This document shows, piece by piece, positions 45,737 through 60,650 of a stretch of DNA of 64,000 nucleotides. Where the stretch lies: contig NZ_CP114901.1 in NCBI RefSeq assembly GCF_027497175.1, positions 3,038,001-3,102,000 of the forward strand. The letters are read 5' to 3'. This DNA comes from Verrucosispora sp. WMMD573 (GTDB lineage: Bacteria; Actinomycetota; Actinomycetes; Mycobacteriales; Micromonosporaceae). Position numbers and translations under genes: made by a program. Numbering within the stretch: position 1 is the first letter of the stretch; each line of letters begins with the position of its first letter. The notes beneath the pieces are model-generated. The model made no database searches. It was given only the letters and a program-made list of their open reading frames with translations, and was not told where the DNA came from.

Positions 45737-46936
45737 TTAGCGGTGGGGGGAGCCGGTGGAGCGGTAGTGGGTCTTTTCGTCGGCGGCGAGGCTGAAGGTT
45801 TCGCGGCGCTCGGGCAGTGGGGCCACCACCAGTCCGGGGCGGTCGACCAGGCGGGTCGTGTCCGGCGGCACCGACAGCGTGGTGTCCTTGGTGGCACGCC
45901 AGCTCAGCACGACCAGCGGCTGGTCCGGAACCGGCAGCTCGTAGACCTGCAACGGGTTCGTCCGGTCGGCGGGGGAGAGCACCACCGGGCCGTCGTCGGC
46001 GGGTCGGTACACCACCGCGCTCATCGTGCCCTCGGCGCTCTCCCAGGTGAGCTGCTCCAACTCGGCCGGCTCGCCACCGTCGAGCGACAGCTCGCCGAGC
46101 GTACGCACGGCGAGTTTAGCCATCGGCCAGGACGCCGGCACCGACTGCGGCACGTCCCGGTCACCGGCACGCCGGAGGATGCTGCCGAACGGGCCGTCCT
46201 CGCCGGCCAGCAGGCAGGTGTCGAGGCCGGTCAGGGCGCGCCGGCCGGAGCCGCTCTCGTCGCGTACCAGCGGGTAGCGGGGGGCGGTGATGCCGGTGCC
46301 GAGGTCGAGTAGCCGATCGGTGGCCCGGCCCCGGGGCAGCGACTCGGTGGAGCGCAGGGTGGCGGTGACGGTCACCGCTCGGCACCGGGGCACCTCGACC
46401 GGGTCGGTCAGGCCGTCGCGGTCGGACAGGATGCGGCCGCTCGGCCCGACCAGTCGCCGAACCCGCTCGGAGGTCAGATAGCGTCGGCCGTCGGCGGCTT
46501 GGACCGGCAACACGTCGGAATAGACCAGGTAGCCGGGATCGGTGTACTCGGTGGCGTGACTGACCGTGTACCGGTCGCCGTCGCCGGTGAGTTGAAGCAG
46601 CCAGGACGCGGCCTCACCGGGCACCGACGCGGCGACCAGGGCCAACGGCCTGCCGTCGACCGCACCGGAGAAGAGGATCCCGGACGAGGGTACGTGCACC
46701 CGGTCGTCCACGGGCGAGCGCCAGTCGCGTACCGCCTCGGTGACGGCGGCGGTCGCCGCGGTGTCCTCGGCGAGTGAGCCGCGGGGCGGCCACACCGTCA
46801 GGGAACCGTCCATGCTGTCATAGCCGACCCGCAGGTCCCGTGCCTGACGCTCGACGACCGGCCCGCAGGCGGTGGCGGCGATCAGCAGGGTGGACAGGCC
46901 GGTGGCGGTCAAGCCGCGCCAACGGGCTGGAGCCAC
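45737..46936 (-). CDS. Putative secreted lipoprotein of unknown function
   Basis: A 399-residue exported protein. The N-terminus has a signal sequence ending in a lipobox, STLLIAATAC (Cys24), so it is probably lipid-anchored outside the membrane. The rest is beta-rich without recognisable domain motifs; segments such as GILFSGAVDGRPLALVAAS and PLVVLSWRATKDTTLSVPP suggest a beta-propeller or sandwich. It is divergent from the first of three large membrane paralogues, with a 169-nt promoter region between. I do not recognise the family. Confidence 0.78.
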   Translation of the reverse strand: MAPARWRGLTATGLSTLLIAATACGPVVERQARDLRVGYDSMDGSLTVWPPRGSLAEDTAATAAVTEAVRDWRSPVDDRVHVPSSGILFSGAVDGRPLALVAASVPGEAASWLLQLTGDGDRYTVSHATEYTDPGYLVYSDVLPVQAADGRRYLTSERVRRLVGPSGRILSDRDGLTDPVEVPRCRAVTVTATLRSTESLPRGRATDRLLDLGTGITAPRYPLVRDESGSGRRALTGLDTCLLAGEDGPFGSILRRAGDRDVPQSVPASWPMAKLAVRTLGELSLDGGEPAELEQLTWESAEGTMSAVVYRPADDGPVVLSPADRTNPLQVYELPVPDQPLVVLSWRATKDTTLSVPPDTTRLVDRPGLVVAPLPERRETFSLAADEKTHYRSTGSPHR

Positions 46937-47062
46937 CTGTCACGCCCCCGATCGGATCGCGTCGTCGTGTCGGAGGGCAATAGTACGAGACGTTCCGTCG
47001 CCGCTTCGGGTCGCCATACGCTGCGTCGCGTGGCCACCACACCGACCACAGGGGACACCGCG

Positions 47063-47096
47063 TTGACTTGGGGCATTTTCCCCACTCGGGTAGACT
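47063..47096 (+). promoter_or_regulatory. Candidate promoter of the first membrane paralogue
   Basis: TAGACT at 47091-47096 is preceded by TTGGGG (47068-47073) with a 17-bp spacer; TTGACT at 47063-47068 lies further out. A GGGG-CATTTT-CCCC inverted repeat overlaps the spacer. Transcription would begin about 3 nt before the GTG, giving an almost leaderless mRNA. Confidence 0.5.
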
Positions 47097-47105
47097 CCGC
47101 CGACT

Positions 47106-49253
47106 GTGACGCCTGCCGAGACCCGCGCCGCCGCGCTGCCGAGATCCGCCGACGTCGCCGACTCTCCCTCCGAAGTCGTCACCGTCGGTGATCAGCCGCA
47201 CGACCGCGTGCGGTCCGCGCCGGGGGCCACCACGTCCGCCGCCGAGCCGGCCGTGGCGGAGGCCGCAGCGATCGACGGGGCGGCACCCGCGACCGAGGCC
47301 CCGGCACCCGCGACCGAGGCCCCGGCACCCGCGACCGAGGCCCCGGCACCCGCGACCGAGGCCCCGGCACCCGCGACCGAGGCGCCGGTCACGGAGGCGC
47401 CGATCACCGAGGCACCCGCGACCGGGGGTGGGACGGACCGGCAGTTGACGGAGACCGCACCGGCCGACGGTACGCGGGGCGCCGATGCCGCCGATGCCGC
47501 TCCGGAGCGCCGACGCCGGTGGACGCCCCGGCGACGGGACCTCGCGGTCTTCGGCGGGTTCCTGCTGACCGCGCTCTGGGTGACCAGCCAGATCTGGATG
47601 GACCCGGCCGGTCGGGTGGCCTCGCTCTACAGCAGTGACCCGGCGCAGGTGCAGTTCTTTCTCGCCCACTCGGTGCGGGTGGTGCTGCACGGGGAGTTTC
47701 CCTTCTTCACCGAGCAGTTCAACTATCCCGACGGGGTCAACCTGATGGCCAACACGGCCATCCTCGCCCTGGGTATCCCGATGGTGCCGGTGACCCTGCT
47801 GTTCGGGCCGGCCGTGACGTTCGTACTGCTGGTGACGCTCGGTCTCGCCGGGACCGCCTCGGCCTGGTATTTCGTGCTGTCCCGGCACGTGGTGCGCAAC
47901 CCGCTCGCCGCGGTGGTGGGTGGCTGGTTCTGCGGCTTCTCACCGGCGATGTTGTCGCACGCCAGCTGGCACCCGAACATCATCAGCCAGTTCCTGCTGC
48001 CGTTCATCGTGTGGCGGGTCATGGTGATCACCCGATCGACCCGGCCGTACCGGGACGGCGCGCTGCTGGCCCTGCTGGTCACCGCCCAGGCGTTCATCAA
48101 CGAGGAGATCCTGCTCTTCACCGCGATGGGCTGCGGGATCTTCCTGATCGCGGTGGTCGTCCAGCGGCCCGGGCTCTGGTCGGCGGCCTGGCGGCCGTTG
48201 GTCAAGTCGCTGGTCACCTGCACGGTGATCGCCGGCGCGCTGTTGGCGTACCCGCTGTACATCCAGTTCGCCGGCCCGATGGCGTACCACGGGCTCAGCG
48301 ACGCCGTCCGTGACTACGGCAACGACATCGCCGCGTACTTCGCCCCCGGTTCGCCCACAATCGGCGGCAACCAGCGGGCGAACGTCAATCTCGCGCCGAA
48401 CTACTCCGAGGAGAACGCCTTCTTCGGGTGGAGCCTGGCGTTGATCGCGGTCGGCATCGTGCTCTGGCTCCGACGGGAGGTGCTGATCCGGGCGCTCGCC
48501 GCGACCGCCGCCTTCTACACGATTCTGTCCCTCGGTGAGCGGATCAGCTGGTGGGACCGGGAACTGGTCGTCGGGCCGTGGGAGTGGCTGGTCCGGCTGC
48601 CGCTGCTCGACGCGGTGGTGCCGACCCGGTTCGGCATGATCACCGGCGTGGTGGTGGCGATCCTGCTGGCTCTGGCCATCGAGCGGACCAGCACCCTGTC
48701 CATGGACCGGCGGACCGTGCGTACGCTCACCGCCGCCGGTCTGGTGCTCGCGTTGCTGCCGATCACCCCGATGCCGCTGCCGATGACCTCCCGCCCGCCG
48801 GTGCCGGACTTCATCACCTCCGACCGGTGGCGCGCCTACGTCGGGCCTGACCAGACCCTGGTGCCGATCCCGGTGCCGAGCATGGGCAACACCCACGGCA
48901 TGCGCTGGGCCGCCGCCACCAACCTCGACTTCAAGATCCCCGGTGGCTACTTCCTCGCCCCACGTAACGGCAACACCGGCGACCCGGGTCGCTTCGGTGG
49001 CCGGCCCAGCGGCATCGGGAAGCTACTGGAAGAGGTCGCCACCACCGGCCGGACGCCGCAACTGGACGACCGGCAGCGGCGTCGGTCCCTGGACGAGTTG
49101 CGGCACTGGCGGGCGGCGATCCTCGTGCTGCCGGTCCGGCAGCCGCACTCGGAGCCGCTGCGGCAGACCGTCGAGCAACTGGTCGGACCGGCCCGGCTCG
49201 AACTGGACGTCTGGGTGTGGGACGTACGGTCACTCACCGACCCCCGGGTCTGA
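47106..49253 (+). CDS. Polytopic membrane protein, GT-C glycosyltransferase-like, paralogue 1
   Basis: A 715-residue membrane protein. Residues 1-135 are hydrophilic and include a (ATEAPAP)n low-complexity run encoded by a 21-bp tandem repeat. About 11 transmembrane helices follow from residue 150, then an extracytoplasmic domain of about 170 residues. It shares with its two paralogues here the loop NYPDGVNLMANT, the acidic FINEEILLF motif, ENAFFGW and VVPTRFGMI. An early acidic loop and the topology recall GT-C membrane glycosyltransferases or YfhO-like proteins, but no enzyme motif is decisive. Its TGA overlaps the ATG of paralogue 2. Confidence 0.8.
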   Translation: MTPAETRAAALPRSADVADSPSEVVTVGDQPHDRVRSAPGATTSAAEPAVAEAAAIDGAAPATEAPAPATEAPAPATEAPAPATEAPAPATEAPVTEAPITEAPATGGGTDRQLTETAPADGTRGADAADAAPERRRRWTPRRRDLAVFGGFLLTALWVTSQIWMDPAGRVASLYSSDPAQVQFFLAHSVRVVLHGEFPFFTEQFNYPDGVNLMANTAILALGIPMVPVTLLFGPAVTFVLLVTLGLAGTASAWYFVLSRHVVRNPLAAVVGGWFCGFSPAMLSHASWHPNIISQFLLPFIVWRVMVITRSTRPYRDGALLALLVTAQAFINEEILLFTAMGCGIFLIAVVVQRPGLWSAAWRPLVKSLVTCTVIAGALLAYPLYIQFAGPMAYHGLSDAVRDYGNDIAAYFAPGSPTIGGNQRANVNLAPNYSEENAFFGWSLALIAVGIVLWLRREVLIRALAATAAFYTILSLGERISWWDRELVVGPWEWLVRLPLLDAVVPTRFGMITGVVVAILLALAIERTSTLSMDRRTVRTLTAAGLVLALLPITPMPLPMTSRPPVPDFITSDRWRAYVGPDQTLVPIPVPSMGNTHGMRWAAATNLDFKIPGGYFLAPRNGNTGDPGRFGGRPSGIGKLLEEVATTGRTPQLDDRQRRRSLDELRHWRAAILVLPVRQPHSEPLRQTVEQLVGPARLELDVWVWDVRSLTDPRV
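47281..47385 (+). repeat. 21-bp tandem repeat, five copies, coding
   Basis: Five consecutive 21-bp units beginning CGGCACCCGCGACCGAGGCC; the first four are identical and the fifth differs near its end. They encode repeats of ATEAPAP in the hydrophilic N-terminus of the membrane protein. Exact identity suggests recent expansion and likely copy-number variation between strains. Confidence 0.93.
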
Positions 49254-51079
49254 TGTCGCTCGGTACCGTCGAGCGGGACGTGCCGGCCCGCACCACCGGT
49301 CGCCGTTGGCGGCTCCGCCCGCGTACGCCCGACCTGGTGGTGGTGGCCGGCTATCTGGCGCTGGCCGGCTGGCTGACCAGCCGGCAGTGGGGCCGGCCGG
49401 ACCGGCTCTTCCACCAGGCCGGCGACCAGATCCTCTTCGAGTGGATGCTGGCCCACGCCGCCCGTGCGGTGGCCGGCCTGGACAATCCGCTGTGGAGCGA
49501 CGCGCTGAACGCGCCCGGGGGGTTGAACTTGATGGCCAACACCTCGGTGCTCGGCCTGGGCGTCCCGTTGGCCCCGGTCACGCTGCTGTTCGGCTCGCAG
49601 GTGGCGTTCGCGGTGGCGGTGGTCGGCTGCCTGGCCGGCACGGCCACCGCCTGGTACGTGCTGCTGCGCCGCCGCCTGGTCGAGTCCCGGCTGGCCGCCG
49701 CGCTCGGCGGGCTGGTCTGCGGCTTCGCCCCGGGCATGGTCGCGCAGGCCGGATCGCACCTGCACATGGCCGCCCAGTTCCTGGTGCCGGTGATCCTGGC
49801 ACTGGTGTTCGCGCCCGTCCCGGCAGATCCGACAGCGGCACCGATGGGCGCCTGGGCACGGGTGTGGCGGCCCGGTGCGCTGCTCGGTCTGGTCGTGACG
49901 TACCAGGCGTTCCTCGGCGAGGAGGTGCTGCTTCTGGTGGCGCTCGCCGCCGGTGTCCTCGTTCTCGGGTACGCGCTGGCCGACCGGGCCGCCGCACGCC
50001 GGCTCGCCCCGGTCACGGCCGGCCGGATCGCGGTCGGTGCGGTGGTCGCGACGGCCCTGCTGGCCTACCCGCTGTGGTTCCAGTTCTTCGGCCCCGGCCA
50101 CTACCGGGGGATGCCGTTCCACGCGTACGGCTTCCAGTTGGACGCCGCCTCGTTCACCGCCACGGCCCGGCAGACCGTCTTCGGCGACCATCGCCTGCCC
50201 GCCCTGTTGGCCCCCAACGCGACCGAGGAGAACTCCTTCTTCGGGCCGGGTCTGCTGGTGTTGGCCGTGGTCGTGACGGTGTGGCTGTGGCGTCGACCGC
50301 TGGTCCGGGCCCTCGCCGCCTGCGGGCTGGTGTTCGCCCTGCTCTCCCTCGGCCCCCGGGTACGCCTCGACGGATCGTTGACGGAGCTGCCCGGTCCGTA
50401 CCGGCTGATCGCCGAGCTGCCGCTGCTCGACCATGTGGTGCCGGCCCGGTTCGCGCTGGTCTGCGTGCCCGTGCTGGGCATCCTGCTCGCCCTCTCGGTG
50501 GACCGGGTACAGCGGCAGTCGACCCCCGCCGGCGCGCAACCGGACGCGGTGCCGGTGCGACTGCTCTGGGCCGGTGCGGTGGCCGCCGCGCTGCTGCCGT
50601 TGGCACCGACCCCGATCCGCACCGTGCCGAATTGGCAGGTCCCGGCGTTCGTGGCGGAGGGGACCTGGCGGGCGTACGTGCCGGCGGGGCGGACGGTGGT
50701 GCCGGTGCCGCCGGTGACCAACGCGGGTCAGAGCCCGGCGATGCTCTGGTCCGCCCGGACCGGGCTGGCCTTCACCGCTCCGGGTGGATTCTTCATCGGC
50801 CCTCGTTCCCCGGACGATCCGACGGCCCGCTGGGGCGCGCCGGACCGGCCCACCTCATTGCTGTTGCGCCGGGTGGCCGACACCGGCGAGATGCCGCCGA
50901 TCAGCGAGACCGACCGCCGGCAGGCGGTGGCCGACCTGCGGCACTGGCGGGCGGCCGTGGTGGTGCAGGGTGGACTGCACCACGGTGACCCGGTGCGCCG
51001 GACGGTCGAGGCCCTGCTCGGGCCCGCCCGGGAGATCGGCGGCGCGCTCGTCTGGGACGTCCGGCCCCTCGTGGGTTGA
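49253..51079 (+). CDS. Polytopic membrane protein, GT-C glycosyltransferase-like, paralogue 2
   Basis: A 608-residue membrane protein with about 11 transmembrane helices from residue 28 and a C-terminal soluble domain. Paralogous to its neighbour: NAPGGLNLMANT, the acidic FLGEEVLLLVAL, ENSFFGPG and HVVPARFALV occupy corresponding places. The soluble domain ends VWDVRPLV, as VWDVRSL in paralogue 1 and LWDVRDQ in paralogue 3. It lacks the repetitive N-terminus of paralogue 1. ATG at 49253 overlaps the previous stop, so the two are co-translated. Function not established; cell-envelope glycan assembly is a guess from topology. Confidence 0.8.
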   Translation: MSLGTVERDVPARTTGRRWRLRPRTPDLVVVAGYLALAGWLTSRQWGRPDRLFHQAGDQILFEWMLAHAARAVAGLDNPLWSDALNAPGGLNLMANTSVLGLGVPLAPVTLLFGSQVAFAVAVVGCLAGTATAWYVLLRRRLVESRLAAALGGLVCGFAPGMVAQAGSHLHMAAQFLVPVILALVFAPVPADPTAAPMGAWARVWRPGALLGLVVTYQAFLGEEVLLLVALAAGVLVLGYALADRAAARRLAPVTAGRIAVGAVVATALLAYPLWFQFFGPGHYRGMPFHAYGFQLDAASFTATARQTVFGDHRLPALLAPNATEENSFFGPGLLVLAVVVTVWLWRRPLVRALAACGLVFALLSLGPRVRLDGSLTELPGPYRLIAELPLLDHVVPARFALVCVPVLGILLALSVDRVQRQSTPAGAQPDAVPVRLLWAGAVAAALLPLAPTPIRTVPNWQVPAFVAEGTWRAYVPAGRTVVPVPPVTNAGQSPAMLWSARTGLAFTAPGGFFIGPRSPDDPTARWGAPDRPTSLLLRRVADTGEMPPISETDRRQAVADLRHWRAAVVVQGGLHHGDPVRRTVEALLGPAREIGGALVWDVRPLVG

Positions 51080-51123
51080 CGCGTCCGGCGGGGGCTCCGG
51101 CGGCAGGTGGCACACTCGTCGGG

Positions 51124-51789
51124 GTGAGTGACGTGGCCGCATCGCCGGCGGAGGGCGAGCTGGAGAGTGTCAGTCTGGTGGAGCTCGCCGTCTCCCGGTT
51201 GACCCAAGAGATTCTCAGCGGTCGCAGTGATCCCGGTGAACGGCTGGTGGAGGAGCAACTGACCCGGCGGCTCGGCATCAGCCGGGCACCGCTGCGCGAG
51301 GCGCTGCGGCTGCTGGCGCAGCGGGGGCTGGTCGAGCACGTGCCGCGCCGGGGCGTCCGGGTCGCCACCCTGTCGGACCGCGACGTGCGAGAGCTGTACG
51401 AGCTGCGCGACGTGCTGGAACGATTCGCGGTCCGGTCGGCGATCCCGGTGCAGCGGGAGAGCGATCTGGCCGGGCTGCGGGCGGCGTTGGACCAGATGCG
51501 GGAGGCCACCAGGACCGGTGACCGACTGGCGGTCGCCGAGTCGCATCGGGCGTTCCACGTCGCGCTGGTGGCGCTGGCCGGCAATCGACAACTCTCCGCG
51601 GTGTACGACTCGATCCTGGTGAAATTGCAGCTCTACATGGCGATCAACCTGCGTCGCGAGGCAGAGGTGGCGCAGCCGCACGACGGCGTCCACCGGCACG
51701 AGCGACTCTGCGAGGCGGTCGCGGCCGGTGACCCGGAGCTGGTGCTCGCCGTGCTGTCCGAGCACGGGGCACGGTCGTACCTCGGGTAG
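51124..51789 (+). CDS. GntR/FadR-type (FCD) transcriptional regulator
   Basis: A 221-residue regulator: N-terminal winged helix with ERLVEEQLTRRLGISRAPLREALRLLA (split near residue 45), then an FCD effector domain with metal-binding-type histidines (HRAFHVALVALAGN and HDGVHRHERLCEAV). FCD regulators usually respond to organic acids or similar metabolites. It precedes the allophanate-hydrolase operon by 75 nt on the same strand and most likely controls it. GTG start at 51124; little space to the preceding membrane gene. Confidence 0.92.
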   Translation: MSDVAASPAEGELESVSLVELAVSRLTQEILSGRSDPGERLVEEQLTRRLGISRAPLREALRLLAQRGLVEHVPRRGVRVATLSDRDVRELYELRDVLERFAVRSAIPVQRESDLAGLRAALDQMREATRTGDRLAVAESHRAFHVALVALAGNRQLSAVYDSILVKLQLYMAINLRREAEVAQPHDGVHRHERLCEAVAAGDPELVLAVLSEHGARSYLG

Positions 51790-51847
51790 CTGCACCGGCT
51801 GGCCGTCACGGCGTCGTTACGTACCGCGCGGCTCGCCGAAACACAAC

Positions 51848-51864
51848 TGTCGACAATCGACTGT
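51848..51864 (+). promoter_or_regulatory. Possible GntR operator at the allophanate-hydrolase start
   Basis: The palindrome TGTCGACA at 51848-51855, followed by ATCGACTGT, lies directly before the ATG. TGTCGACA-like sites are plausible for FCD-type GntR proteins, and the position would block transcription or initiation. Inference only. Confidence 0.35.
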
Positions 51865-53802
51865 ATGCCAGAGCGGATCGGATCGATCTCGGAGTTGCGG
51901 TCGGCGTACCGCCGCGGCGACCTGACCCCGACCGACCTGGCGGAACTGGTCCTGGCCGGGCTGTCCGGAGCGGACGGTGGGCCGGTCTGGATCAGCACCG
52001 TGTCGGCCGGCCAGCTCCTCGCCCGCGCCGAGCGGCTGACCGCCACCACCGATCCCGCGACCCTGCCGCTGTACGGGATTCCGTTCGCGGTCAAGGACAA
52101 CATCGACGTCGCCGGCATGATCACCACGGCCGGCTGCCCCGACTTCGGGTACTCAGCCGCCGAGGACGCGCCAGTGGTGCGCCGGCTGCTCGACGCCGGT
52201 GCCCTGCTCGTCGGGAAGACCAACCTCGACCAGTTCGCCACCGGCCTGACCGGGGCACGGTCCCCGTACGGCAGCTGCGAGAGCGTCTTCGGTGGTGGGC
52301 TGATCTCCGGCGGCTCCAGCTCCGGCTCGGCCCTCGCGGTCGCCGTCGGCCAGGTCAGCTTCGCGCTGGGTACGGACACCGCCGGCTCCGGCCGGGTGCC
52401 GGCGGCGCTGAACGGGATCGTCGGCCTCAAGCCCACCCGGGGCCTGCTCAGCACCGCCGGCGTGGTGCCGGCCTGTCGTTCGCTCGACTGCGTCTCGGTC
52501 TTCACCACCAACGTCGCGGACGCGGTGGACGTGCTGCACACCGCGCGCGGGGTCTCGGCGGCCGACCCCTGGGGGCGTCCGCTGCCGGCGGAGCGGGTGG
52601 TGGCCCGCATGCCGGGCACGCTACGCCTCGGCGTACCCCGCGCAGAAGACCTGGAGTTCTTCGGCGACGCGGGACAGGCGGTCCGATTCGCCGTGGGCGT
52701 GCAGGCGCTGCGGGGTCTGGTCAGCCAGGTCGGCTCGGTACCGTTGCAGAGCTTCTTCGAGGCGGGAGAGCTGCTCTACCAGGGGCCGTGGGTGGCCGAG
52801 CGACTCGCCGGGCTGGACGGCTTCCTGCGGGAACATCCCGAAGCTGTCCTGGCGGTCACCCGCAGCGTGCTGGAGACCGGCCGGCGCTACGACGCGATCG
52901 ACGTCTTCCGTGGCCAACACCGGTTGCGCGAGTTGCGGGCCCGGGTCGACCAGCTGTGGCACGAGGTCGACGTGCTGGTGGTGCCCACCGTCGGTACGAC
53001 CTTCACCCTCGACGAGATCGCCGAGGACCCGATCGGCCGCAACATGACGCTCGGCCGCTACACCCAGTTCGCCAACCTGCTCGACCTGGCGGCGGTGACC
53101 GTGCCCAACGGGTTCACCGCGGCGGGCCGGCCGGCGAGCCTGACCCTGCTCGGCCCCGCGTTCAGCGACACCACCCTGGCCCACCTCGCCGCCGCCCTCA
53201 CCGCTGCGACGCAGGCGACCCCCGACGCCGCCGCGACCCGAGCCACCCCCGAGGCCGCCGCCGGGCGAGCCGCCACCGGGGTCGCCGCCGGCACCGTCCC
53301 GGATCAGCCCGCGCCCGAGGCGGTGTCGACGCCTGTCACGGTCGGGGTCCGCTCGCCGGCCGCGGGCACCGCCTCGGCGACCGGGCCGGCGCAGGTGCTG
53401 ATCGCCGTCGTCGGACGGCACCTGGCCGGCGAGTCCCGCAACCGGGAGTTGACCGAGCGGGGAGCAACCCTCGCCGGTGCCGCGCGTACCGCGCCGCGCT
53501 ACCGGCTCTACCGCCTGGAGACGGCCGACGGCGAAGGGCTGCCCGGCCTGGTCCGGGTCGCCGACACCGACCCGGACGGACATCCGATCGAGGTCGAGCT
53601 GTGGCGACTGCCGGTGGCCGCCGTCGGCGAGCTGCTGTCCGGGGTGCCGGTGCCGCTCTCGCTGGGCTGGGTCCGGCTGCACGACGGGCGGGACGTGCTC
53701 GGCTTCCTCTGCGAGGCGTACGCCGTCGACTCGGGAGCCGAGGACATCAGCGCTGCCGGCGGGTGGCGGGCCTACCGCCGGGCCACCGCACACCGGAGTT
53801 GA
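51865..53802 (+). CDS. atzF: Allophanate hydrolase (AtzF type)
   Basis: Hydrolyses allophanate to ammonia and carbon dioxide. 645 residues. The N-terminal amidase-signature domain has Lys77 (AVKDNID), Ser151 (ISGGSSSGSA) and Ser175 (DTAGSGRVPA); spacings of 74 and 24 residues equal those of the AtzF triad Lys91/Ser165/Ser189. The C-terminal domain (from about residue 510, QVLIAVVGRHLAGESRN) is the allophanate hydrolase C-terminal domain. Between them lies an alanine/threonine/proline-rich linker of about 60 residues with repeats of ATPxAAA. No biotin-dependent urea carboxylase is next to it. First structural gene of the operon. Confidence 0.94.
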   Translation: MPERIGSISELRSAYRRGDLTPTDLAELVLAGLSGADGGPVWISTVSAGQLLARAERLTATTDPATLPLYGIPFAVKDNIDVAGMITTAGCPDFGYSAAEDAPVVRRLLDAGALLVGKTNLDQFATGLTGARSPYGSCESVFGGGLISGGSSSGSALAVAVGQVSFALGTDTAGSGRVPAALNGIVGLKPTRGLLSTAGVVPACRSLDCVSVFTTNVADAVDVLHTARGVSAADPWGRPLPAERVVARMPGTLRLGVPRAEDLEFFGDAGQAVRFAVGVQALRGLVSQVGSVPLQSFFEAGELLYQGPWVAERLAGLDGFLREHPEAVLAVTRSVLETGRRYDAIDVFRGQHRLRELRARVDQLWHEVDVLVVPTVGTTFTLDEIAEDPIGRNMTLGRYTQFANLLDLAAVTVPNGFTAAGRPASLTLLGPAFSDTTLAHLAAALTAATQATPDAAATRATPEAAAGRAATGVAAGTVPDQPAPEAVSTPVTVGVRSPAAGTASATGPAQVLIAVVGRHLAGESRNRELTERGATLAGAARTAPRYRLYRLETADGEGLPGLVRVADTDPDGHPIEVELWRLPVAAVGELLSGVPVPLSLGWVRLHDGRDVLGFLCEAYAVDSGAEDISAAGGWRAYRRATAHRS

Positions 53803-53820
53803 CCAACGGAGGAGGAGAGG

Positions 53821-54510
53821 ATGGGCAGGATCGGGCCGGTAACGGCGAACCCCTACCCGTGGCCGTACGACGGCTCGGCCGACACCGCGCGTACCGCACT
53901 GCTCTGCATCGACTGGCAGACCGACTTCTGCGGCCCGGGCGGCTACGTCGACGCGATGGGCTACGACCTCGGCCTCACCCGGGCCGGTCTGCCGGCCACC
54001 GCCCGGCTGCTGGAGCATGCCCGGTCGCTCGGCATGCTTGTCGTGCACACCCGGGAGGGCCACGACCCCGACCTGTCCGACCTGCCGGCGAACAAGCGCT
54101 GGCGGTCCGCGCAGATCGGTGCCGAGATCGGCGCGGCCGGCCCGTGCGGCCGGATCCTGGTGAAGGGCGAGCCCGGCTGGGAGATCGTGCCCGAGGTCGC
54201 CCCGGTGCCCGGCGAGGTGATCGTCGACAAACCCGGCAAGGGTGCCTTCTACGCCACCAATCTCGACCTGGTGCTGCGTACCCGGGGCATCACCCACCTG
54301 ATCCTCACCGGCATCACCACCGACGTCTGCGTACACACCACGATGCGTGAGGCGAACGACCGGGGCTACGAGTGCCTGATCCTCGCCGACTGCACCGGGG
54401 CGACCGACAAGGACAACCACGACGCCGCGCTGCACATGGTGACCATGCAGGGCGGCGTCTTCGGCTGCGTCGCCACCTCCGACGCCGTCATCGCCGCCAC
54501 GACCAGGTGA
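53821..54510 (+). CDS. Cysteine hydrolase, isochorismatase-like, biuret/triuret hydrolase-like (1)
   Basis: A 229-residue amidase. The catalytic triad is Asp31 (CIDWQTDF), Lys137 (DKPGKGAF) and Cys170 (TDVCVHTT). The separations 106 and 33 equal those reported for biuret hydrolase BiuH (Asp36/Lys142/Cys175). The TREGHDPDLSDLP segment is typical of this hydrolase subgroup, which also includes triuret, guanylurea and ureidoacrylate hydrolases. Sits 18 nt behind atzF, with AGGAGG before the ATG. Its product would be allophanate or a precursor that AtzF can use. Exact substrate undetermined. Confidence 0.88.
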   Translation: MGRIGPVTANPYPWPYDGSADTARTALLCIDWQTDFCGPGGYVDAMGYDLGLTRAGLPATARLLEHARSLGMLVVHTREGHDPDLSDLPANKRWRSAQIGAEIGAAGPCGRILVKGEPGWEIVPEVAPVPGEVIVDKPGKGAFYATNLDLVLRTRGITHLILTGITTDVCVHTTMREANDRGYECLILADCTGATDKDNHDAALHMVTMQGGVFGCVATSDAVIAATTR

Positions 54511-54518
54511 GGTGAGCC

Positions 54519-55211
54519 ATGTTGACAGTTGCCGCAGCGCGGCCCTTCCCGTACACCTTCGACCCTGCGACCACCGCGCTGCTCGTCATCGACATGCAGC
54601 GCGACTTCCTGGAGCCCGGCGGCTTCGGTGAGAGCCTGGGCAACGACGTCGGCCAGCTGCGGCGGACCATCGCACCCCTGACGGCGCTGCTGGCCGGTGC
54701 CCGCGCCGCCGGGCTGACGGTCGTGCACACCCGGGAGGGGCACCTGCCCGACCTCTCCGACTGCCCACCGGCCAAGCTCAACCGGGGCCTGCCGAGCAAA
54801 CGCATCGGCGACCCGGGGCCCAAGGGGCGGATTCTCATCCGGGGAGAGTACGGCCACGACATCGTCGACGAGTTGGCGCCGTTACCCGACGAGCCGGTCG
54901 TCGACAAGCCGGGCAAGGGCGCCTTCCACGCCACCGGCCTGGACGCCCTGCTCGCCGGGCGGCACATCCGGAGTCTGCTGGTCACCGGGGTCACCACCGA
55001 GGTGTGCGTGCACACCACGGTCAGGGAGGCCAACGACCGCGGGTACGAGTGCCTCGTGCTCGCCGACTGCGTCGGGTCCTACTTCCCCGAGTTCCACCGG
55101 GTGGGGCTCGACATGATCGCCGCCCAGGGCGGCATCTTCGGGTGGGTGGCCGACTCGACGGACGTGCTCGCCCTGCTGCCCACCACCCCCGTGTTGCAAT
55201 CCTCCTCCTGA
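54519..55211 (+). CDS. Cysteine hydrolase, isochorismatase-like, biuret/triuret hydrolase-like (2)
   Basis: A 230-residue paralogue of the preceding gene, eight nucleotides downstream. Triad Asp25 (VIDMQRDF), Lys130 (DKPGKGAF) and Cys163 (TEVCVHTT). Long stretches match the first copy ([21 protein letters not shown]), but the central loop differs: [19 protein letters not shown] instead of LPANKRWRSAQIGAEIG, which suggests a different substrate. Two such enzymes in sequence fit a two-step path, for example triuret to biuret to allophanate. This is inference; duplication with overlapping specificity is the alternative. Confidence 0.87.
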
Positions 55212-55223
55212 CCGGGAGCAGCC

Positions 55224-56924
55224 ATGGTCCCCACCCGCCCCTCCGTCGTGCCACTGCCGTACTGGGTGCGCGGCGACACCAACGCGTTCTTCGGCTTCGG
55301 CGTCAACGTCCTGGTCAACGTGCTCACCCTGACCGGGCTCTGCCTCTTCGTGGTGAACCTGCCCGAGCGGGAGGTGTTCGGCACGATCCTGCCGGCCCTC
55401 GGTATTGCCCTGGTCGCGGGCAACATCTACTACACCCACCTGGCCCGTCGGCTGGCCCGTAGGGAGGGCCGCTCCGACGTGACCGCCCTGCCGTACGGGC
55501 CGAGCGTGCCGCACATGTTCATCGTCATCTTCGTCATCATGCTGCCCATCTACCTCAGCACCGGTGACCCGGTTCGTGCCTGGGAGGCGGGGCTGGCCTG
55601 GGCCTTCATCATCGGCGTGATCGTGCTGATCGGCGCGTTCGTCGGCCCGTACATCCGCCGCTACACGCCGCGTGCGGCGCTGCTCGGCACGCTCGCCGGC
55701 ATCTCCATCACCTTCATCTCGATGAATCCGGCGGGCCAGATGTGGCGGCTGGCCTGGATCGCCCTGCCGGTCCTCGCGCTGCTGCTGATCGGTCTGCTGA
55801 CCGACGTGAAACTGCCGTTCAATTTCCCGATCGGGCTGGCCGCGCTGCTGCTCGGCACGGCGATCGGCTGGATCGGCGGGGCGATGTCGGTGCCGGACGT
55901 CACCTCGGCGGCCCGGGACATCGCCTTCGCCTTCCCCACCTTCCAGCTCGATCTGCTGCTGCGCGGGCTCTCCGACATGGCACCGCTGCTGGCGACCGCG
56001 ATCCCGCTGGGGGTCTACAACTTCACCGAGGCGATGACCAACGTGGAGAGCGCGGCCACCGCCGGGGACAACTACAACCTGCGCAGTGTGCTACTCGCCG
56101 ACGGGGCCGGCGCGGTCATCGGCTCCGCCCTCGGCTCGCCGTTCCCGCCGGCGGTCTACGTCGGCCATCCGGGTTGGAAGGCCGCCGGTGGGCGTACCGG
56201 CTACTCGATGGCGACCGGGATCGTCATCGCGCTGCTCTGCTTCCTGGGCATGTTCTCCCTGCTCGGGGCGATCTTCCCGACTGCGGCGATCGTGCCGATC
56301 CTGCTCTACATCGGGTTGCTGATCGGTGCCCAGGCGTTCCAGGCGACGCCCCGGGCACATGCTGCGGCGGTGGTGGCGGCCCTGATACCCAACATCGCCG
56401 CGTGGGCGACCGGGCAGATGAACAACGCCCTGGCAGCGGCCGGCACCACCGCCGCCGAGGTCGGCGACGAGGCGTTGGCCGGCGCCGGGGTGGTCTACGA
56501 CGGCCTGCGGATCCTCGGCGAGGGCGCCATCCTCGCTGGTCTGGTGCTCGGCGCGATCGTCGCCTTCATCATCGACAAACGCTTCGTCCAGGCGGCGATC
56601 TTCGCCGCCTCGGGCGCGGTGCTCGCCTTCATCGGTCTGATCCACGGCGAGGAGGTGCGGTGGAACGCCAACGGACAGGTGGCGCTGGGCTACCTCTTCG
56701 TGGCGGTGATCTGCGCGATCTTCGCGCTCGGCAAGTACCCACCCCGGGTGCCCGACCCGGAGGAGGCCGAACTGGACCGCCTGCACGGCGGCAACGCCTC
56801 GACGCCTCCCACGGCTCCGGCCACCACCGTCACGGCCCCGGACGCCACTGCGCCGGCGGCGACAGGTGAGCCGGTCAACGAGTCGGCCGGCGGTGACAAG
56901 CGCGAGCCGGCGGTGAACGGCTGA
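55224..56924 (+). CDS. NCS2-type nucleobase/imide permease
   Basis: A 566-residue permease with about 12-14 transmembrane helices. The N-terminal RGDTNAFFGFGVNVLVNVLT and the central YNFTEAMTNVESAATAGDNYN (split across the motif) are family traits of NCS2/AzgA-related carriers, which import xanthine, uracil and similar N-rich rings by proton symport. The C-terminal 60 residues are a hydrophilic Thr/Pro/Ala tail. It is 12 nt downstream of the second hydrolase and therefore probably imports the substrate of the pathway. Substrate unknown. Confidence 0.88.
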   Translation: MVPTRPSVVPLPYWVRGDTNAFFGFGVNVLVNVLTLTGLCLFVVNLPEREVFGTILPALGIALVAGNIYYTHLARRLARREGRSDVTALPYGPSVPHMFIVIFVIMLPIYLSTGDPVRAWEAGLAWAFIIGVIVLIGAFVGPYIRRYTPRAALLGTLAGISITFISMNPAGQMWRLAWIALPVLALLLIGLLTDVKLPFNFPIGLAALLLGTAIGWIGGAMSVPDVTSAARDIAFAFPTFQLDLLLRGLSDMAPLLATAIPLGVYNFTEAMTNVESAATAGDNYNLRSVLLADGAGAVIGSALGSPFPPAVYVGHPGWKAAGGRTGYSMATGIVIALLCFLGMFSLLGAIFPTAAIVPILLYIGLLIGAQAFQATPRAHAAAVVAALIPNIAAWATGQMNNALAAAGTTAAEVGDEALAGAGVVYDGLRILGEGAILAGLVLGAIVAFIIDKRFVQAAIFAASGAVLAFIGLIHGEEVRWNANGQVALGYLFVAVICAIFALGKYPPRVPDPEEAELDRLHGGNASTPPTAPATTVTAPDATAPAATGEPVNESAGGDKREPAVNG

Positions 56925-57033
56925 GCCGATGCCGTTCGGCCGGGCGGCGGTGCGCCCGCACCAGCCCGCCGCCGCCCGGCCGGATGCCCCCGCCCACACG
57001 ACGACGTCCCGCCAGCCAGGAAGGAACCGCCGG

Positions 57034-57423
57034 ATGGAGATCGACCGGACGGACGTGGTCGCCGAGGTGACTGCCGCCTTCGCCGGCTACGAGCAGGCGC
57101 TGGTGGCCGGCGACGTCGACCGGATCTGTGGATACTTCTGGGACGCCGAGGCCACCGTGCGCTTCGGCCTCGCCGACCACCAGTACGGGCTCGACGAACA
57201 GCGCAAGTGGCGGGCCGCGCAACCACCGCTGCCGCCGGGCCGCCGGCTGGTCGACACGGTGGTCACCGCCTTCGGCCCGGACCTCGCGGTCGTCACGACC
57301 CGATTCGGGTACGCCGACGCCGCCACGACCGGCCGGCAGACCCAGACCTGGGTACGCCTACCGGAGGGCTGGCGCATCGTCACCGCCCACGTCTCCGAGC
57401 CGCTGCCTCCTGACGTCGAATGA
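57034..57423 (+). CDS. AtzH-like protein (DUF3225, SnoaL superfamily)
   Basis: A 129-residue protein with a SnoaL/NTF2-like alpha+beta cone. AtzH of Pseudomonas sp. ADP, a DUF3225 protein, was reported to convert 1,3-dicarboxyurea to allophanate, with Tyr22 and Arg46 needed. Here Tyr19 (GYEQAL) and Arg43 (ATVRFG) lie exactly 24 residues apart, as in AtzH. The gene ends the operon: GntR, AtzF, two hydrolases, permease, AtzH. ATG at 57034 follows AGGAAGGA. Its stop is seven bases from the stop of the convergent membrane paralogue. Activity is inferred. Confidence 0.87.
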   Translation: MEIDRTDVVAEVTAAFAGYEQALVAGDVDRICGYFWDAEATVRFGLADHQYGLDEQRKWRAAQPPLPPGRRLVDTVVTAFGPDLAVVTTRFGYADAATTGRQTQTWVRLPEGWRIVTAHVSEPLPPDVE

Positions 57424-57430
57424 CAGCCCG

Positions 57431-59281
57431 TCACACCTGGTCGCGTACGTCCCAGAGCCAGACGTCGTCGACGCGTTGCGGGCCACCGAGCAGCGCGGTC
57501 AGCAGTTCCCGCAGCACCGGCTCGCGGGGATGCGCGCCCAGCACCACCACCGACGCCCGCCAGAAGCGCAGGTCCTCCACCGCCTGCCGGCGATTCTCGT
57601 CGCTGATCTCGGGCAGCTCACCGGCGTCCATGGTCTGGTAGATCAGGGTGCTGGTGGGCCGGTTCGGTGCGCCGAAGACACCTTCGCCGTCCTCGTTCGG
57701 GCCGATGAAGTAGCCGGCCGGAATCGCGAACTCGTGCCCGGTGAGCGCGCTCCACCGCAGCGTGGACAGGCCGTGCACGTTGCTCGGGATGGGCACCGGC
57801 ACCAGCGTGCGGCCCTTCGGCACGTACGGCCGCCAGGCGCCCGAGGTGATGAAGGTCGGCGGCGGGTCGACCGGCTCGGCCGGCAGTGGACGGGGCAGCA
57901 GCGGCAGGAGGGCGAGAGTGATGGCGGCGTACCCGACGAGGTGCTGCCAGCGGGGACGCCGCCGGGTGGGAGCCACCCCCTCCGGTGCGCGCGGAGCCGG
58001 CACCGGCGGTCGGTGGCGGCCGGCCACCGCGTCCCAGGCAAGTGCCAGCAGTACGCCGAGCGCGGCGGTGGTCACCAGGGTCAGCCGGGTCGGCATCATC
58101 ATCTCGACCAGCGGCAGATCCTCCGGAATGTACGACCACGGGCCGGCGATACCGGTCAGCTCCCCGTTGAACCGGATCTCCGGTCCGAGCGCGGCGACCG
58201 AGAAGACCACCACCAGCACGGCCAGGATCCGGGCCAGCAGCGAGCGGCGGACCAGCAGGGCCAGGGCCACCACCGACAGCAGCACCAGCGGCCAGCCGAA
58301 CCAGGTGTTCTGTTCGGTCATACCGATGGTCGCCTCCACCGCCTCGTCACCGGCGATGGTGTCGCGGGGGAAGGTGACGAAGGCGACGATGTCCTCGCCC
58401 CAGCTGTGGAACACCCCGCCCTGGAGTCCCCGGTAGGACTGCGGCCCGTTGAACTGGAACCAGATCGGGTACGCGGTCAGCAGCAGCGCCACCGCTCCAC
58501 CGAGGCCCAGCCCGGCCGCGAACGTGCCGGCCCGCGCCCACGCCACGCGGGGACGCATCGCCGCGTACGCGATCACGACGACCAGGCAGGCCATCGCGGT
58601 GAGCAGCAGCATCTCCTCGTTGATGAAGATCTGGTACGCCACCAGCAGCCCCAGCACCAGCCCGTTGCGCCGCCAGCGGCCCGGCTCGACCAGCCGGAAC
58701 ACCCGCACCACGATCAGCGGCAGCAGGAAGTTGGAGACGAAGTTGGGCTGACCGTTGGCGTGGTGCACGATGCCCGGGGCGAAACCGAGGAACGCGCCGC
58801 CGACGAAGGCCGCCGCCCGGGAGCGCACCAGGTGCCGCGACAGCATCCAGTACGAGGTGCCCGCTGTCGCGGCCAACGCCCCGCCCAGGTAGAGCGCGTA
58901 CACCACCTGGGGGCCGAGCAGCATGGTCAGTGGGGCCAGCGGCAGGGTCACCCCGAGCAGCGAGGTGTTGGCCATCATGTTCACCCCGTCCGGGGCGTTC
59001 TGCCGGGCGGTGAAGAGCGGATTCTCCAGGTGCTGCACCGAGTACGCGCCGTGCGCGAAAAGCCACTCGAACCAGCTGTGGTCGGTGGGCAGGTGCGACG
59101 AGACCCGGTTGTTCACGTCGGCCCAGTAGTTGAGGCAGACGATGACGCCGAGTAGCACGTAGGCTCCGATGGCCAGCGCGTCGGCGCGTGTCGGCCGTCG
59201 CCGGGCACGGGTTGTCGTTGATCGCGTCTCGACGGTCTCGGAGACGGGGTTCAGCGAGGGATTCACCACCGGCACAGCCAC
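57431..59281 (-). CDS. Polytopic membrane protein, GT-C glycosyltransferase-like, paralogue 3
   Basis: A 616-residue membrane protein with about 11 transmembrane helices and a C-terminal soluble domain. Shared motifs with the paralogues at 47.1 and 49.3 kb: NAPDGVNMMANT, FINEEMLLLTA, QNTWFGWP, MMMPTRLTLV, and the ending VWLWDVRD. Oriented opposite to them, on the far side of the ureide-type operon. The first 30 residues are basic and cytoplasmic. Start at GTG 59281. Function unknown; the three genes clearly descend from one ancestor. Confidence 0.8.
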   Translation of the reverse strand: MAVPVVNPSLNPVSETVETRSTTTRARRRPTRADALAIGAYVLLGVIVCLNYWADVNNRVSSHLPTDHSWFEWLFAHGAYSVQHLENPLFTARQNAPDGVNMMANTSLLGVTLPLAPLTMLLGPQVVYALYLGGALAATAGTSYWMLSRHLVRSRAAAFVGGAFLGFAPGIVHHANGQPNFVSNFLLPLIVVRVFRLVEPGRWRRNGLVLGLLVAYQIFINEEMLLLTAMACLVVVIAYAAMRPRVAWARAGTFAAGLGLGGAVALLLTAYPIWFQFNGPQSYRGLQGGVFHSWGEDIVAFVTFPRDTIAGDEAVEATIGMTEQNTWFGWPLVLLSVVALALLVRRSLLARILAVLVVVFSVAALGPEIRFNGELTGIAGPWSYIPEDLPLVEMMMPTRLTLVTTAALGVLLALAWDAVAGRHRPPVPAPRAPEGVAPTRRRPRWQHLVGYAAITLALLPLLPRPLPAEPVDPPPTFITSGAWRPYVPKGRTLVPVPIPSNVHGLSTLRWSALTGHEFAIPAGYFIGPNEDGEGVFGAPNRPTSTLIYQTMDAGELPEISDENRRQAVEDLRFWRASVVVLGAHPREPVLRELLTALLGGPQRVDDVWLWDVRDQV

Positions 59282-59351
59282 GACGGGCCATCGTACAGGC
59301 GGAACCCCGCCCGCCCGCCGCGCGTCTGGTGTGTGTCAGGGGAGGACAGGC

Positions 59352-60650
59352 GTGACGTTGATCGACCTCGGTGAGCTGACCGAGCCGACCGATCCGCCGC
59401 CGGCACAGCGCCGCCGCTCCGGGCCGGGTGGCCGCCGGGTGGCGGTCGTGTTGGTGGCACTCGTCGCGCTGCTGACCTTGGCCGGCGGCGCACCGCCGGC
59501 CCGGCGGATCCACGCGGTCGTGCCCGCTGCCCTGGGCAGCGACCTGTTCATCGCCGCCGACCAGATCTTCACGGTTTCCCCGATGCCCGGCGTCACCGAC
59601 GGTAGCCAGGAGCTGCTCGCCTATCCACGGCCCGACCGTCCCACCGTCGCGCCGCAGCGGCTGACGCCGTTGTGGCGGGTACCCGTGCCGCTGGGCAACC
59701 GGGTCTACCGGGTGCAGCCGGTCGCCGACGCCGGGCTGCTGGTCGCCATGGGTCGCCAGGACACCGGCACCAGCCAGACCGTACGGTTGGACACGTACAC
59801 CGGCGCGGAGCGTTGGCGGGTGCCCGGTATCGCCATCCTGGAGATGCCCGACCGGGCGCTGTTGCGCACGTTCAGCGACAGCGAGCCGAACGTACTACGG
59901 ATGATCGATCTAGCGACCGCCGACGAACTGTGGTCCATCACCTTGTCGGCGGCCAGTGTCGACCACTGGCAGCGGGAAGACGGAACGCTCGACAGCATCG
60001 TGCTGGCGACGGTCGACGGCGAGGTCCAGCTGATCGACCCGATGACCGGGACGGTGCGGCACCGCCTTCCCCCGCCCGCCGACCATTCGAGCAGCTACCA
60101 GCAGGCGTACGTGGCCGGCGATCTCGTGACGGTGGTGCGCAATTCCCGTACCATTGCCGCGCTCACCGTCGATGATCTGGCCGAGCGCTGGCAGGTGACC
60201 GTGCCGACGGCGACCTACGTCACCGGCTGCGGGCCACTGCTCTGCGCCGGGCTGGCCGGCGGTGGGTTGCAGGTCCTCGACCCGGCCACCGGGGAGGTGC
60301 GCTGGAGCAGCGAGGAGATTCTCGACATCGTGCTGGTGGGTGACGGCAACGCCCTCGCGGTGGCCCGGAACACCAACGAAATCGTCACGCTCGCCCTGAG
60401 CACCGGTGCGACGGTGACCGAGCACGGGTCGTGGAACATGGTTGCCCGCTACGAGTACGCGCCGCAGGTGCTCATGGTGCGTGCGGTGGCCGAGGAGGGG
60501 CTGGTGCTGGCCCGGCTCGGCCCCACGGGGGCACCGGCCCGCCGGCTCGATGTGCTGCCGGGCGCCGGCGGTGACTGCCAGACCCGGTACGACCTCGTCG
60601 GCTGCCGTCTGTCCAACGGTGGCTACGGCATCTGGCAACTGCCCGACTGA
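59352..60650 (+). CDS. Membrane-anchored PQQ-like beta-propeller protein
   Basis: A 432-residue protein: short cytoplasmic N-terminus with RRRSGPGGRR, one transmembrane helix (residues 31-46), then an extracellular domain built of beta-propeller blades (TYTGAERWRVPG, LATADELWSITL, DPMTGTVRHRLP, DPATGEVRWSSE). The repeats are of the PQQ/Kelch-like kind found in BamB-like scaffolds; no cofactor residues are evident. A cysteine pair (CGPLLC) may be a disulfide. The GTG at 59352 follows GGAGGA. It is divergent from membrane paralogue 3, and a functional link is possible but unproven. Confidence 0.83.
   Translation: MTLIDLGELTEPTDPPPAQRRRSGPGGRRVAVVLVALVALLTLAGGAPPARRIHAVVPAALGSDLFIAADQIFTVSPMPGVTDGSQELLAYPRPDRPTVAPQRLTPLWRVPVPLGNRVYRVQPVADAGLLVAMGRQDTGTSQTVRLDTYTGAERWRVPGIAILEMPDRALLRTFSDSEPNVLRMIDLATADELWSITLSAASVDHWQREDGTLDSIVLATVDGEVQLIDPMTGTVRHRLPPPADHSSSYQQAYVAGDLVTVVRNSRTIAALTVDDLAERWQVTVPTATYVTGCGPLLCAGLAGGGLQVLDPATGEVRWSSEEILDIVLVGDGNALAVARNTNEIVTLALSTGATVTEHGSWNMVARYEYAPQVLMVRAVAEEGLVLARLGPTGAPARRLDVLPGAGGDCQTRYDLVGCRLSNGGYGIWQLPD

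What the first reader, a model, noticed from the sequence alone, without database searches (positions are those of the whole stretch)
51124..57423. Putative imide/ureide nitrogen-scavenging operon lacking AtzD, AtzE and AtzG
Six co-oriented genes with short gaps: GntR regulator, AtzF-type allophanate hydrolase, two biuret-hydrolase-like enzymes, an NCS2 permease and an AtzH-like protein. Known cyanuric acid catabolism uses AtzD-G-E-H-F. Here ring opening (AtzD) and the AtzE/AtzG amidase are missing and two isochorismatase-like hydrolases take their place. This suggests import and stepwise hydrolysis of an open-chain imide such as triuret or biuret to allophanate, then ammonia. I know of no described pathway combining AtzH with BiuH-like enzymes, but could not search.
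Basis: partly seen in the sequence, partly recalled or inferred. Interest (0 to 1): 0.82.

Follow-up and report, generated by a model that had tools for sequence, protein, structure and literature searches.

The report
Triuret-scavenging operon with AtzH decarboxylase
A soil bacterium related to Micromonospora carries a six-gene cassette that looks built to import triuret, a fertilizer impurity, and break it down to ammonia; the pathway is known, but one protein, a relative of an enzyme from herbicide breakdown, seems to stand in for a different known enzyme.

Summary
The six genes are real. The two isochorismatase-like hydrolases are not AtzE substitutes: one is a biuret hydrolase (BiuH, over the curated cut-off), the other a triuret hydrolase (TrtA) with the seven published TrtA-type residues I checked. 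With AtzF this is the published triuret pathway (Tassoulas 2020): triuret, carboxybiuret, biuret, allophanate, ammonia.

What looks new is the arrangement. In some published triuret clusters TrtB decarboxylates carboxybiuret. Here no TrtB-like cupin was found, and an AtzH-family protein sits in the operon. In 150 Micromonosporaceae genomes, 45 of 45 with TrtA have AtzH within 3 kb and 0 of 105 without TrtA have a strong match. In 137 TrtA loci AtzH and the cupin never occur together. BiuH-linked AtzH falls on one side of the tree and lacks two pocket arginines kept in 12 of 18 AtzE-linked rows. I infer that it decarboxylates carboxybiuret; untested.

Also found: a permease without Pfam match but with a UraA-like predicted fold, beside TrtA in 107 of 137 loci; a conserved palindrome at the first catabolic gene; and an empty site in 9 of 9 same-genus relatives examined.

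The parts
51124..51789 (+). GntR-family (FCD) regulator, proposed regulator of the operon
   Evidence: PF00392 and PF07729 over cut-off; of 13 NCBIfam matches none reached its cut-off; 90% and 87% identical proteins in L022 and L023
51847..51863 (.). operator-like palindrome CTGTCGA-CAA-TCGACTG directly before the atzF start codon (one mismatch between the arms)
   Evidence: core GTCGACAATCGAC with at most 1 mismatch at the first catabolic gene after the regulator in 41 of 45 Micromonosporaceae loci, and a 2-mismatch form at the same place in the other 4; exact 16-mer found once in the 6.5 Mb genome, with 10 further sites at 1-2 mismatches against 3 for the reversed control pattern
51865..53802 (+). 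AtzF, allophanate hydrolase with its C-terminal domain
   Evidence: TIGR02713 669.7 bits against cut-off 511.05; PF21986 AH_C; PDB 4gyr E 5e-148
53821..54510 (+). BiuH, biuret hydrolase
   Evidence: NF050097 416.4 bits against cut-off 370; PDB 6xjm 'Biuret hydrolase' E 2.5e-119; BiuH-type Tyr, Tyr, Asp, Thr, Val at the discriminating positions, but Ala where the BiuH consensus is Ser
54519..55211 (+). TrtA, triuret hydrolase
   Evidence: best PDB match 6xix (Herbaspirillum TrtA) E 1e-82, 62% identity; below the BiuH cut-off (263 against 370); keeps F35, N41, A134, E160, Y187, Q202, I205 and the triad D24, K129, C162 (numbering)
55224..56924 (+). permease with UraA-like fold, outside Pfam and NCBIfam, proposed triuret importer
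57034..57423 (+). AtzH-family (PF11533, DUF3225) protein, proposed carboxybiuret decarboxylase
   Evidence: PF11533 143 bits; Tyr22, Arg46, Arg63, Arg73, Gln106, Gln108 kept, Arg66 to Gln and Arg96 to Tyr
51080..57430 (.). whole cassette, placed between two convergent paralogous membrane-protein genes
   Evidence: the matches to the flanking genes lie 19-232 bp apart in 9 of 9 same-genus relatives examined and 6366 bp apart here

Best explanation
A triuret-scavenging operon. The UraA-fold permease brings triuret in. TrtA removes one ammonia to give 1-carboxybiuret. The AtzH-family protein takes CO2 off carboxybiuret to give biuret, the step attributed elsewhere to TrtB. BiuH turns biuret into allophanate and ammonia. 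AtzF turns allophanate into two CO2 and two ammonia. The GntR regulator acts at the palindrome just before the first catabolic gene. Shown here: gene identities by profile and residue, gene order, co-occurrence, palindrome, empty site. Established elsewhere for homologues: TrtA, BiuH and AtzF chemistry. Inferred: the AtzH step, the permease substrate, the regulator-operator pairing. I put about 0.9 on the TrtA-BiuH-AtzF assignment and about 0.55 on carboxybiuret being the AtzH substrate.
For: TrtA and BiuH assigned by profile cut-off, PDB match and published discriminating residues (PMC7948467). TrtA product is carboxybiuret, spontaneous half-life about 20 min, so a decarboxylase has work to do. 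AtzH follows TrtA: 45 of 45 TrtA-positive and 0 of 105 TrtA-negative Micromonosporaceae genomes. BiuH-type loci without TrtA: 0 of 8 (L010, L073-L079) have AtzH or a TrtB-like cupin in the 14.6-19.9 kb held. AtzH and cupin: 0 of 137 TrtA loci have both (unchanged with a better cupin profile). BiuH plus TrtA loci: 53 with AtzH, 9 with cupin, 9 with neither, 1 with AtzE and AtzH. BiuH+AtzH also occurs in three Nevskia loci with no AtzE in the locus and no AtzG in the genome. BiuH-linked AtzH is one side of a branch of the AtzH tree. All 14 genomes whose TrtA locus lacks AtzF carry AtzF elsewhere, which fits a route through allophanate.
Against: No biochemistry for this AtzH subfamily was found. 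Published AtzH is assigned to 1,3-dicarboxyurea, not carboxybiuret. Loss of Arg66/Arg96 is not a clean marker: 6 of 18 AtzE-linked AtzH (all Verrucomicrobiota) lack them too, and published Arg66 and Arg96 variants were not among those reported as weakened. The context split is one event on the tree, one independent pair, support 82. Nine of 72 BiuH-plus-TrtA loci have neither AtzH nor a clear cupin (one, L090, has a weak 36-bit cupin match at its contig end), so the step can be spontaneous or the seeds missed something. The exclusion of AtzH and cupin is weak by itself: 5 joint loci would be expected if independent, about 2.4 outside Micromonosporaceae. That the cupin beside trtA in Rhizobium is TrtB is my inference.
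Confidence: 0.6

Rival explanations
1. BiuH acts directly on carboxybiuret to give 1,3-dicarboxyurea, and AtzH does its published job, dicarboxyurea to allophanate. Biuret is bypassed, as in Pseudomonas sp. ADP, with BiuH in the place of AtzEG.
For: Matches the published AtzH substrate. Other TrtA loci carry AtzE and AtzH and would run this way if AtzE does what ADP AtzE does (15 loci); AtzG was found in 15 of 15 AtzE-bearing genomes or records examined.
Against: The BiuH here is an ordinary one, over the cut-off with the published biuret-site residues, and BiuH with the same three marker residues pairs with the cupin elsewhere. BiuH-linked AtzH lacks two arginines of the pocket described for a doubly charged substrate in 53 of 53 rows, though 6 of 18 AtzE-linked rows lack them too.
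Confidence: 0.2
2. AtzH decarboxylates allophanate to urea, which urease then uses, so AtzF is a second outlet.
For: The genome has urease alpha; 14 of 45 Micromonosporaceae TrtA loci lack AtzF.
Against: AtzF is elsewhere in all 14 such genomes (in one, G057, split over two frames and below cut-off) and absent in the 2 TrtA-less genomes examined. [quoted passage not shown]
Confidence: 0.07
3. The second hydrolase acts on another ureide (for example oxalurate, guanylurea or a ureido acid) and the operon is a general ureide scavenger.
For: TrtA-like proteins also sit beside AllF/AllG genes of oxalurate breakdown (13 loci without BiuH), so not every TrtA-like protein need act on triuret. AtzH here just passes the HpxZ (oxalurate) cut-off, 135.8 against 135.
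Against: All seven TrtA-type residues checked are kept and characterised TrtA is almost exclusive for triuret. No AtzE-type (HpxY) or AllF/AllG gene near the window operon.
Confidence: 0.08

Closest known systems
TrtA-BiuH-AtzF triuret pathway of Herbaspirillum sp. BH-1 and Rhizobium leguminosarum (Tassoulas 2020, PMC7948467)
   Same: Same three enzymes, co-located, same residue signatures; a GntR gene stands near the Rhizobium cluster L008 too.
   Different: No cupin (presumed TrtB); AtzH instead; a UraA-fold permease instead of the BMP-type ABC transporter seen in L008.
AtzDGEHF cyanuric acid operon of Pseudomonas sp. ADP (PMC6219798; L160)
   Same: AtzF and an AtzH-family protein.
   Different: No AtzD or AtzE found, no room for AtzG in the cassette; AtzH lies on another side of the tree and lacks Arg66 and Arg96.
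TrtA-permease-AtzF-AtzG-AtzE-AtzH clusters (Terrarubrum L003; Paroceanicella L002, which lacks AtzF), found here
   Same: TrtA, same permease family, AtzH.
   Different: AtzEG in place of BiuH.
HpxZ of the Klebsiella hpx cluster (L161)
   Same: Same Pfam family; many AtzH relatives are named HpxZ in public records.
   Different: HpxZ sits beside HpxX and an AtzE-family protein and keeps Arg66 and Arg96.

Membership tests
Triuret hydrolase TrtA (54519-55211) | catalytic triad Asp24, Lys129, Cys162 | tested here: met
   aligned with 6xix; numbering
Triuret hydrolase TrtA (54519-55211) | F35, N41, A134, E160, Y187, I205 (TrtA consensus against BiuH consensus) and Q202 | tested here: met
   all seven present in the alignment; positions. 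Q202 is shared with BiuH
Triuret hydrolase TrtA (54519-55211) | activity on triuret, little on biuret | not testable with these tools
   needs enzyme assay
Biuret hydrolase BiuH (53821-54510) | score over the NCBIfam equivalog cut-off NF050097 | tested here: met
   416.4 against 370; the TrtA ORF scores 263.2 and fails it
Biuret hydrolase BiuH (53821-54510) | biuret-site residues Asp36, Phe41, Lys142, Lys145, Gln215 and BiuH-type Tyr47, Tyr53, Asp173, Val218 | tested here: met
   alignment to 6azo and to TrtA; numbering (Tyr47 by alignment)
Triuret degradation operon | TrtA, BiuH and AtzF together | tested here: met
Triuret degradation operon | trtB decarboxylase gene (said to be absent from comammox clusters in PMC12625717, so not treated as defining) | tested here: not met
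   no cupin hit in window 44000-60500 with seeds or profile; that the cupin is TrtB is inferred
AtzDGEHF cyanuric acid operon | AtzD cyanuric acid hydrolase | tested here: not met
   no hit in the own genome (controls silent) or in window 44000-60500
AtzDGEHF cyanuric acid operon | AtzE | tested here: not met
   over cut-off in 0 of 150 family genomes, own included; 22 genomes have matches of 305-336 bits below the cut-off of 425.75; one of 14 controls passed it
AtzDGEHF cyanuric acid operon | AtzG | tested here: inconclusive
   no gap in the cassette exceeds about 109 bases, so none in the operon; the rest of the genome was not searched for AtzG
AtzH (PF11533) | profile match and Tyr22/Arg46 | tested here: met
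   143.2 bits against cut-off 27; residues
AtzH (PF11533) | dicarboxyurea or carboxybiuret decarboxylation | not testable with these tools
   substrates unstable; needs assay
HpxZ (oxalurate catabolism) | NF033625 cut-off | tested here: met
   135.8 against 135, marginal
HpxZ (oxalurate catabolism) | neighbouring HpxX and HpxY (AtzG/AtzE-type) | tested here: not met
   no AtzE-type hit near the operon and no room for HpxX in the cassette
NCS2 (UraA-type) permease | UraA-type fold (shared with SLC26 and SLC4 transporters) | tested here: met
NCS2 (UraA-type) permease | NCS2 rather than SLC26 membership | tested here: inconclusive
   UraA and UapA rank first by Z (23.2, 22.1), SLC26Dg follows at 19.9; Foldseek ranks the bicarbonate transporter BicA first
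NCS2 (UraA-type) permease | match to a curated transporter profile | tested here: not met
   best Pfam E among 40 members 0.084, to an unrelated family; none in NCBIfam; no PDB sequence match

The most novel reading that the evidence does not exclude
A distinct AtzH subfamily is a carboxybiuret decarboxylase that replaces the unrelated cupin TrtB, so that bacteria process the carboxybiuret made by TrtA with three interchangeable modules (TrtB+BiuH, AtzH+BiuH, AtzEG+AtzH), fed by an uncharacterised UraA-fold triuret permease.
Probability: 0.5. Interest if true: 0.55.

Novelty: new variant of a known kind. Interest (0 to 1): 0.45.

Why it matters
It would assign a function to proteins that public records often name 'oxalurate catabolism protein HpxZ', and to a permease family named 'regulator' or 'xanthine permease' with no Pfam match. 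It would extend triuret use to 30% of the sampled Micromonosporaceae (45 of 150). It would show that carboxybiuret is a junction at which unrelated enzymes are swapped. Triuret is an impurity of urea fertilizer (PMC7948467), so the organisms that can use it matter for the fate of fertilizer nitrogen.

Tried and rejected
AtzE substitution by two hydrolases: rejected, because the hydrolases have their own published roles. Own-genome cyanuric acid use: no AtzD found, but no control genome rang, so weak. Arg66/Arg96 loss as a marker of BiuH linkage: a prediction that held in 53 of 53 BiuH-linked rows, but 6 of 18 AtzE-linked rows break the converse. I first thought those six might lack AtzG and so have no true AtzE; the genome search found AtzG in all of them. 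Independent-contrast test: only one independent pair, so the 71 rows are one event. One BiuH-linked row (L040) has Arg at the Tyr22 position; not explained. The family of TrtB could not be read in its source paper. AtzG seeds found AtzG in only 3 of the 15 AtzE-bearing genomes or records where the Pfam profile found it; an AtzG profile built was spoilt by a long frame that also covers TrtA, and its matches were discarded. A cupin profile found the same ten loci plus a weak match in L090. Alignment A5 had two rows taken with wrong coordinates and was not used. Some long frames with an AtzH-like domain were not followed up. Rows dropped before the counts: ten short duplicate loci (L012-L021), loci with no TrtA call (L001, L010, L073-L079), and loci whose TrtA end was identical to one already counted. 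The 137 loci were chosen by similarity to TrtA (one search was a capped list: best 80 of 574) and 48 come from one family, so the counts are not a random sample; many loci are cut by contig ends. The AtzH threshold for one search was set after seeing the scores; at E 0.001 56 genomes match and 48 pass the Pfam cut-off, but the extra ones score about 30 bits or less, and any cut between 31 and 97 bits on the best match gives the same 45 genomes. The Fisher value ignores relatedness. The palindrome core with 1 mismatch also occurs at unrelated places in a few loci.
Full report
The AtzH gene probably begins at 57034, where GGAAGGA precedes the ATG. The window lies in a 6.5 Mb genome whose proteins are closest to those of Micromonospora and Verrucosispora.

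The two hydrolases are BiuH and TrtA. The first passes the curated biuret hydrolase cut-off (416 against 370 bits) and is closest to the solved biuret hydrolase 6xjm. The second fails that cut-off (263 bits) and is closest to 6xix, which PMC7948467 describes as triuret hydrolase of Herbaspirillum. That paper (parts 1 to 4 of 6 read) names positions that separate TrtA from BiuH. The window TrtA has the TrtA letter at F35, N41, A134, E160, Y187 and I205, and the shared Q202. The window BiuH has the BiuH-type letters Tyr, Tyr, Asp, Thr and Val; at the A134 position it has Ala, where the BiuH consensus is Ser. With AtzF (669.7 bits against 511.05) the published triuret pathway is complete: triuret to carboxybiuret to biuret to allophanate to ammonia.

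The AtzH place is the unexplained part. The paper says carboxybiuret decays to biuret with a half-life of about 20 minutes and that TrtB catalyses this in some organisms; PMC12625717 (passages) says comammox clusters lack trtB. The text I saw does not give the family of TrtB; in two Rhizobiaceae loci a cupin gene follows trtA (L008, L011), and I take that as TrtB. AtzH of Pseudomonas ADP was assigned to the decarboxylation of 1,3-dicarboxyurea, the AtzEG product (PMC6219798, passages).

I collected TrtA loci from plasmid records, from 150 genomes of the window's family and 396 of its phylum (fetched) and from named genomes of many phyla (best 80 of 574), and annotated them with one set of seeds. 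In 137 non-redundant TrtA loci the companions fall into modules. BiuH with AtzH and no AtzE: 53 loci, of which 3 are Nevskia, 2 Streptomyces and 48 Micromonosporaceae. BiuH with the cupin: 9. BiuH with neither: 9, two of them with AllF/AllG; one of the nine (L090) has a weak cupin match. AtzE with AtzH: 15; AtzE alone: 2; BiuH, AtzE and AtzH: 1. AllF/AllG without BiuH: 13. Cupin without BiuH: 1. None of these: 34. AtzH and the cupin never occur together, also with a better cupin profile; about 5 joint loci would be expected if independent, 2.4 outside Micromonosporaceae, so this alone is weak. Eight BiuH-type loci without TrtA have neither AtzH nor cupin in the sequence held (L010, L073-L079).

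Within Micromonosporaceae the link is complete. TrtA was found in 45 of 150 genomes, each with a BiuH-type second match beside it. A strong AtzH match (97 bits or more) was found in the same 45, within 3 kb of TrtA, and in none of the other 105 (Fisher p 2e-39, which ignores relatedness). AtzE over the cut-off: 0 of 150, with 22 genomes having weaker matches. Where AtzF is not in the TrtA locus it is elsewhere in the genome: 14 of 14, one of them (G057) split over two frames; a fifteenth genome searched, G090, has it some 7 kb from TrtA. The two TrtA-less genomes searched have none. This speaks against AtzH serving a urea outlet.

AtzH residues (71 distinct rows): Tyr22, Arg46, Arg63, Arg73, Gln106 and Gln108 of the published pocket are kept in all rows, apart from Tyr22 in one (L040). 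Arg66 and Arg96 are both kept in 12 of 18 AtzE-linked rows and in 0 of 53 BiuH-linked rows (Gln and Tyr in actinobacteria, Ala or Leu with Ala in Nevskia). This fits a substrate with one carboxylate instead of two. Against it: six AtzE-linked rows from Verrucomicrobiota have lost them too, although AtzG is present in those genomes, and Arg66 and Arg96 variants of ADP AtzH were not among those reported as weakened. On the tree the BiuH-linked rows are one side of a branch with support 82, so this is one evolutionary event.

A palindrome CTGTCGA-CAA-TCGACAG lies at the start of the first catabolic gene after the regulator, whether AtzF or BiuH. In the window it is 51847-51863 with one mismatch between arms, directly before the ATG. 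Core with at most one mismatch: 41 of 45 Micromonosporaceae loci; the other four have a 2-mismatch form at the same place. In those 45 loci two further hits lie elsewhere. The exact 16-mer occurs once in the genome; ten more sites have 1 or 2 mismatches, against three for the reversed control. It also stands after the GntR gene in L066 and near the operon in L067, two loci of another family of the same order. I propose that it is the operator of the GntR protein.

The cassette was inserted as a unit. The membrane-protein genes that flank it have convergent neighbours at 19-232 bases between the matches in 9 of 9 same-genus relatives examined, seven without TrtA and two with the operon elsewhere; here they are 6366 bases apart. 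That the neighbour in the relatives is the orthologue of 49217-51079 rests on similar scores only.

Conclusion: a new variant of the known triuret pathway, with AtzH most likely in the place of TrtB. The hydrolase assignments are firm; the AtzH reaction, the permease cargo and the operator are predictions. Literature searches found no account of AtzH with TrtA or BiuH, within an open-licence library that lacks the TrtB paper.

Noticed in passing
L007 5995-11553 (E. coli IncF plasmid), L070, L071, L072, L101, L102, L107, L116, L135, L139: TrtA-type proteins (63% identity to the window TrtA in L007, marker residues F, N, E) sit beside AllF/AllG and, in most of these loci, carbamate kinase genes. 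Of 285 plasmid records matched by the window TrtA at E 1e-40, 78 are Escherichia. This suggests another route or another substrate.
   Followed up: partly
L002 7540-11939 and L003 9022-15137: TrtA, the same permease family, AtzG, AtzE and AtzH together without AtzD: a possible triuret route through dicarboxyurea that I did not find described in the papers searched.
   Followed up: partly
window 47106-49253, 49217-51079, 57431-59281: Three paralogous large membrane proteins (37-42% identity to one another, no Pfam match over cut-off) flank the operon; the genome holds seven matches to one of them, itself included. Function unknown.
   Followed up: no
G031:C1:9601310-9601648, G095:C86:25621-25962: Second, more divergent AtzH-like matches (87 and 77 bits) inside long open frames in two TrtA-positive genomes; similar ones in G436, G464, G362, G491. 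Fusion or chance long frame not checked.
   Followed up: no
L010 7010-7645: A BiuH-like hydrolase on a conjugative Pseudomonas plasmid from a wastewater plant, beside ABC transporter genes and a nucleoside deaminase; possibly the guanylurea hydrolase type (recalled, not tested).
   Followed up: no
PMC12625717 abstract: The abstract lists 'trtA, biuH, and atzH' for nitrifiers while the passages I saw name atzF and trtB; probably a slip, but worth checking in its gene maps.
   Followed up: partly
G000:C1:4902659-4903018: The own genome encodes urease alpha, so urea from spontaneous allophanate breakdown would not be a dead end.
   Followed up: no
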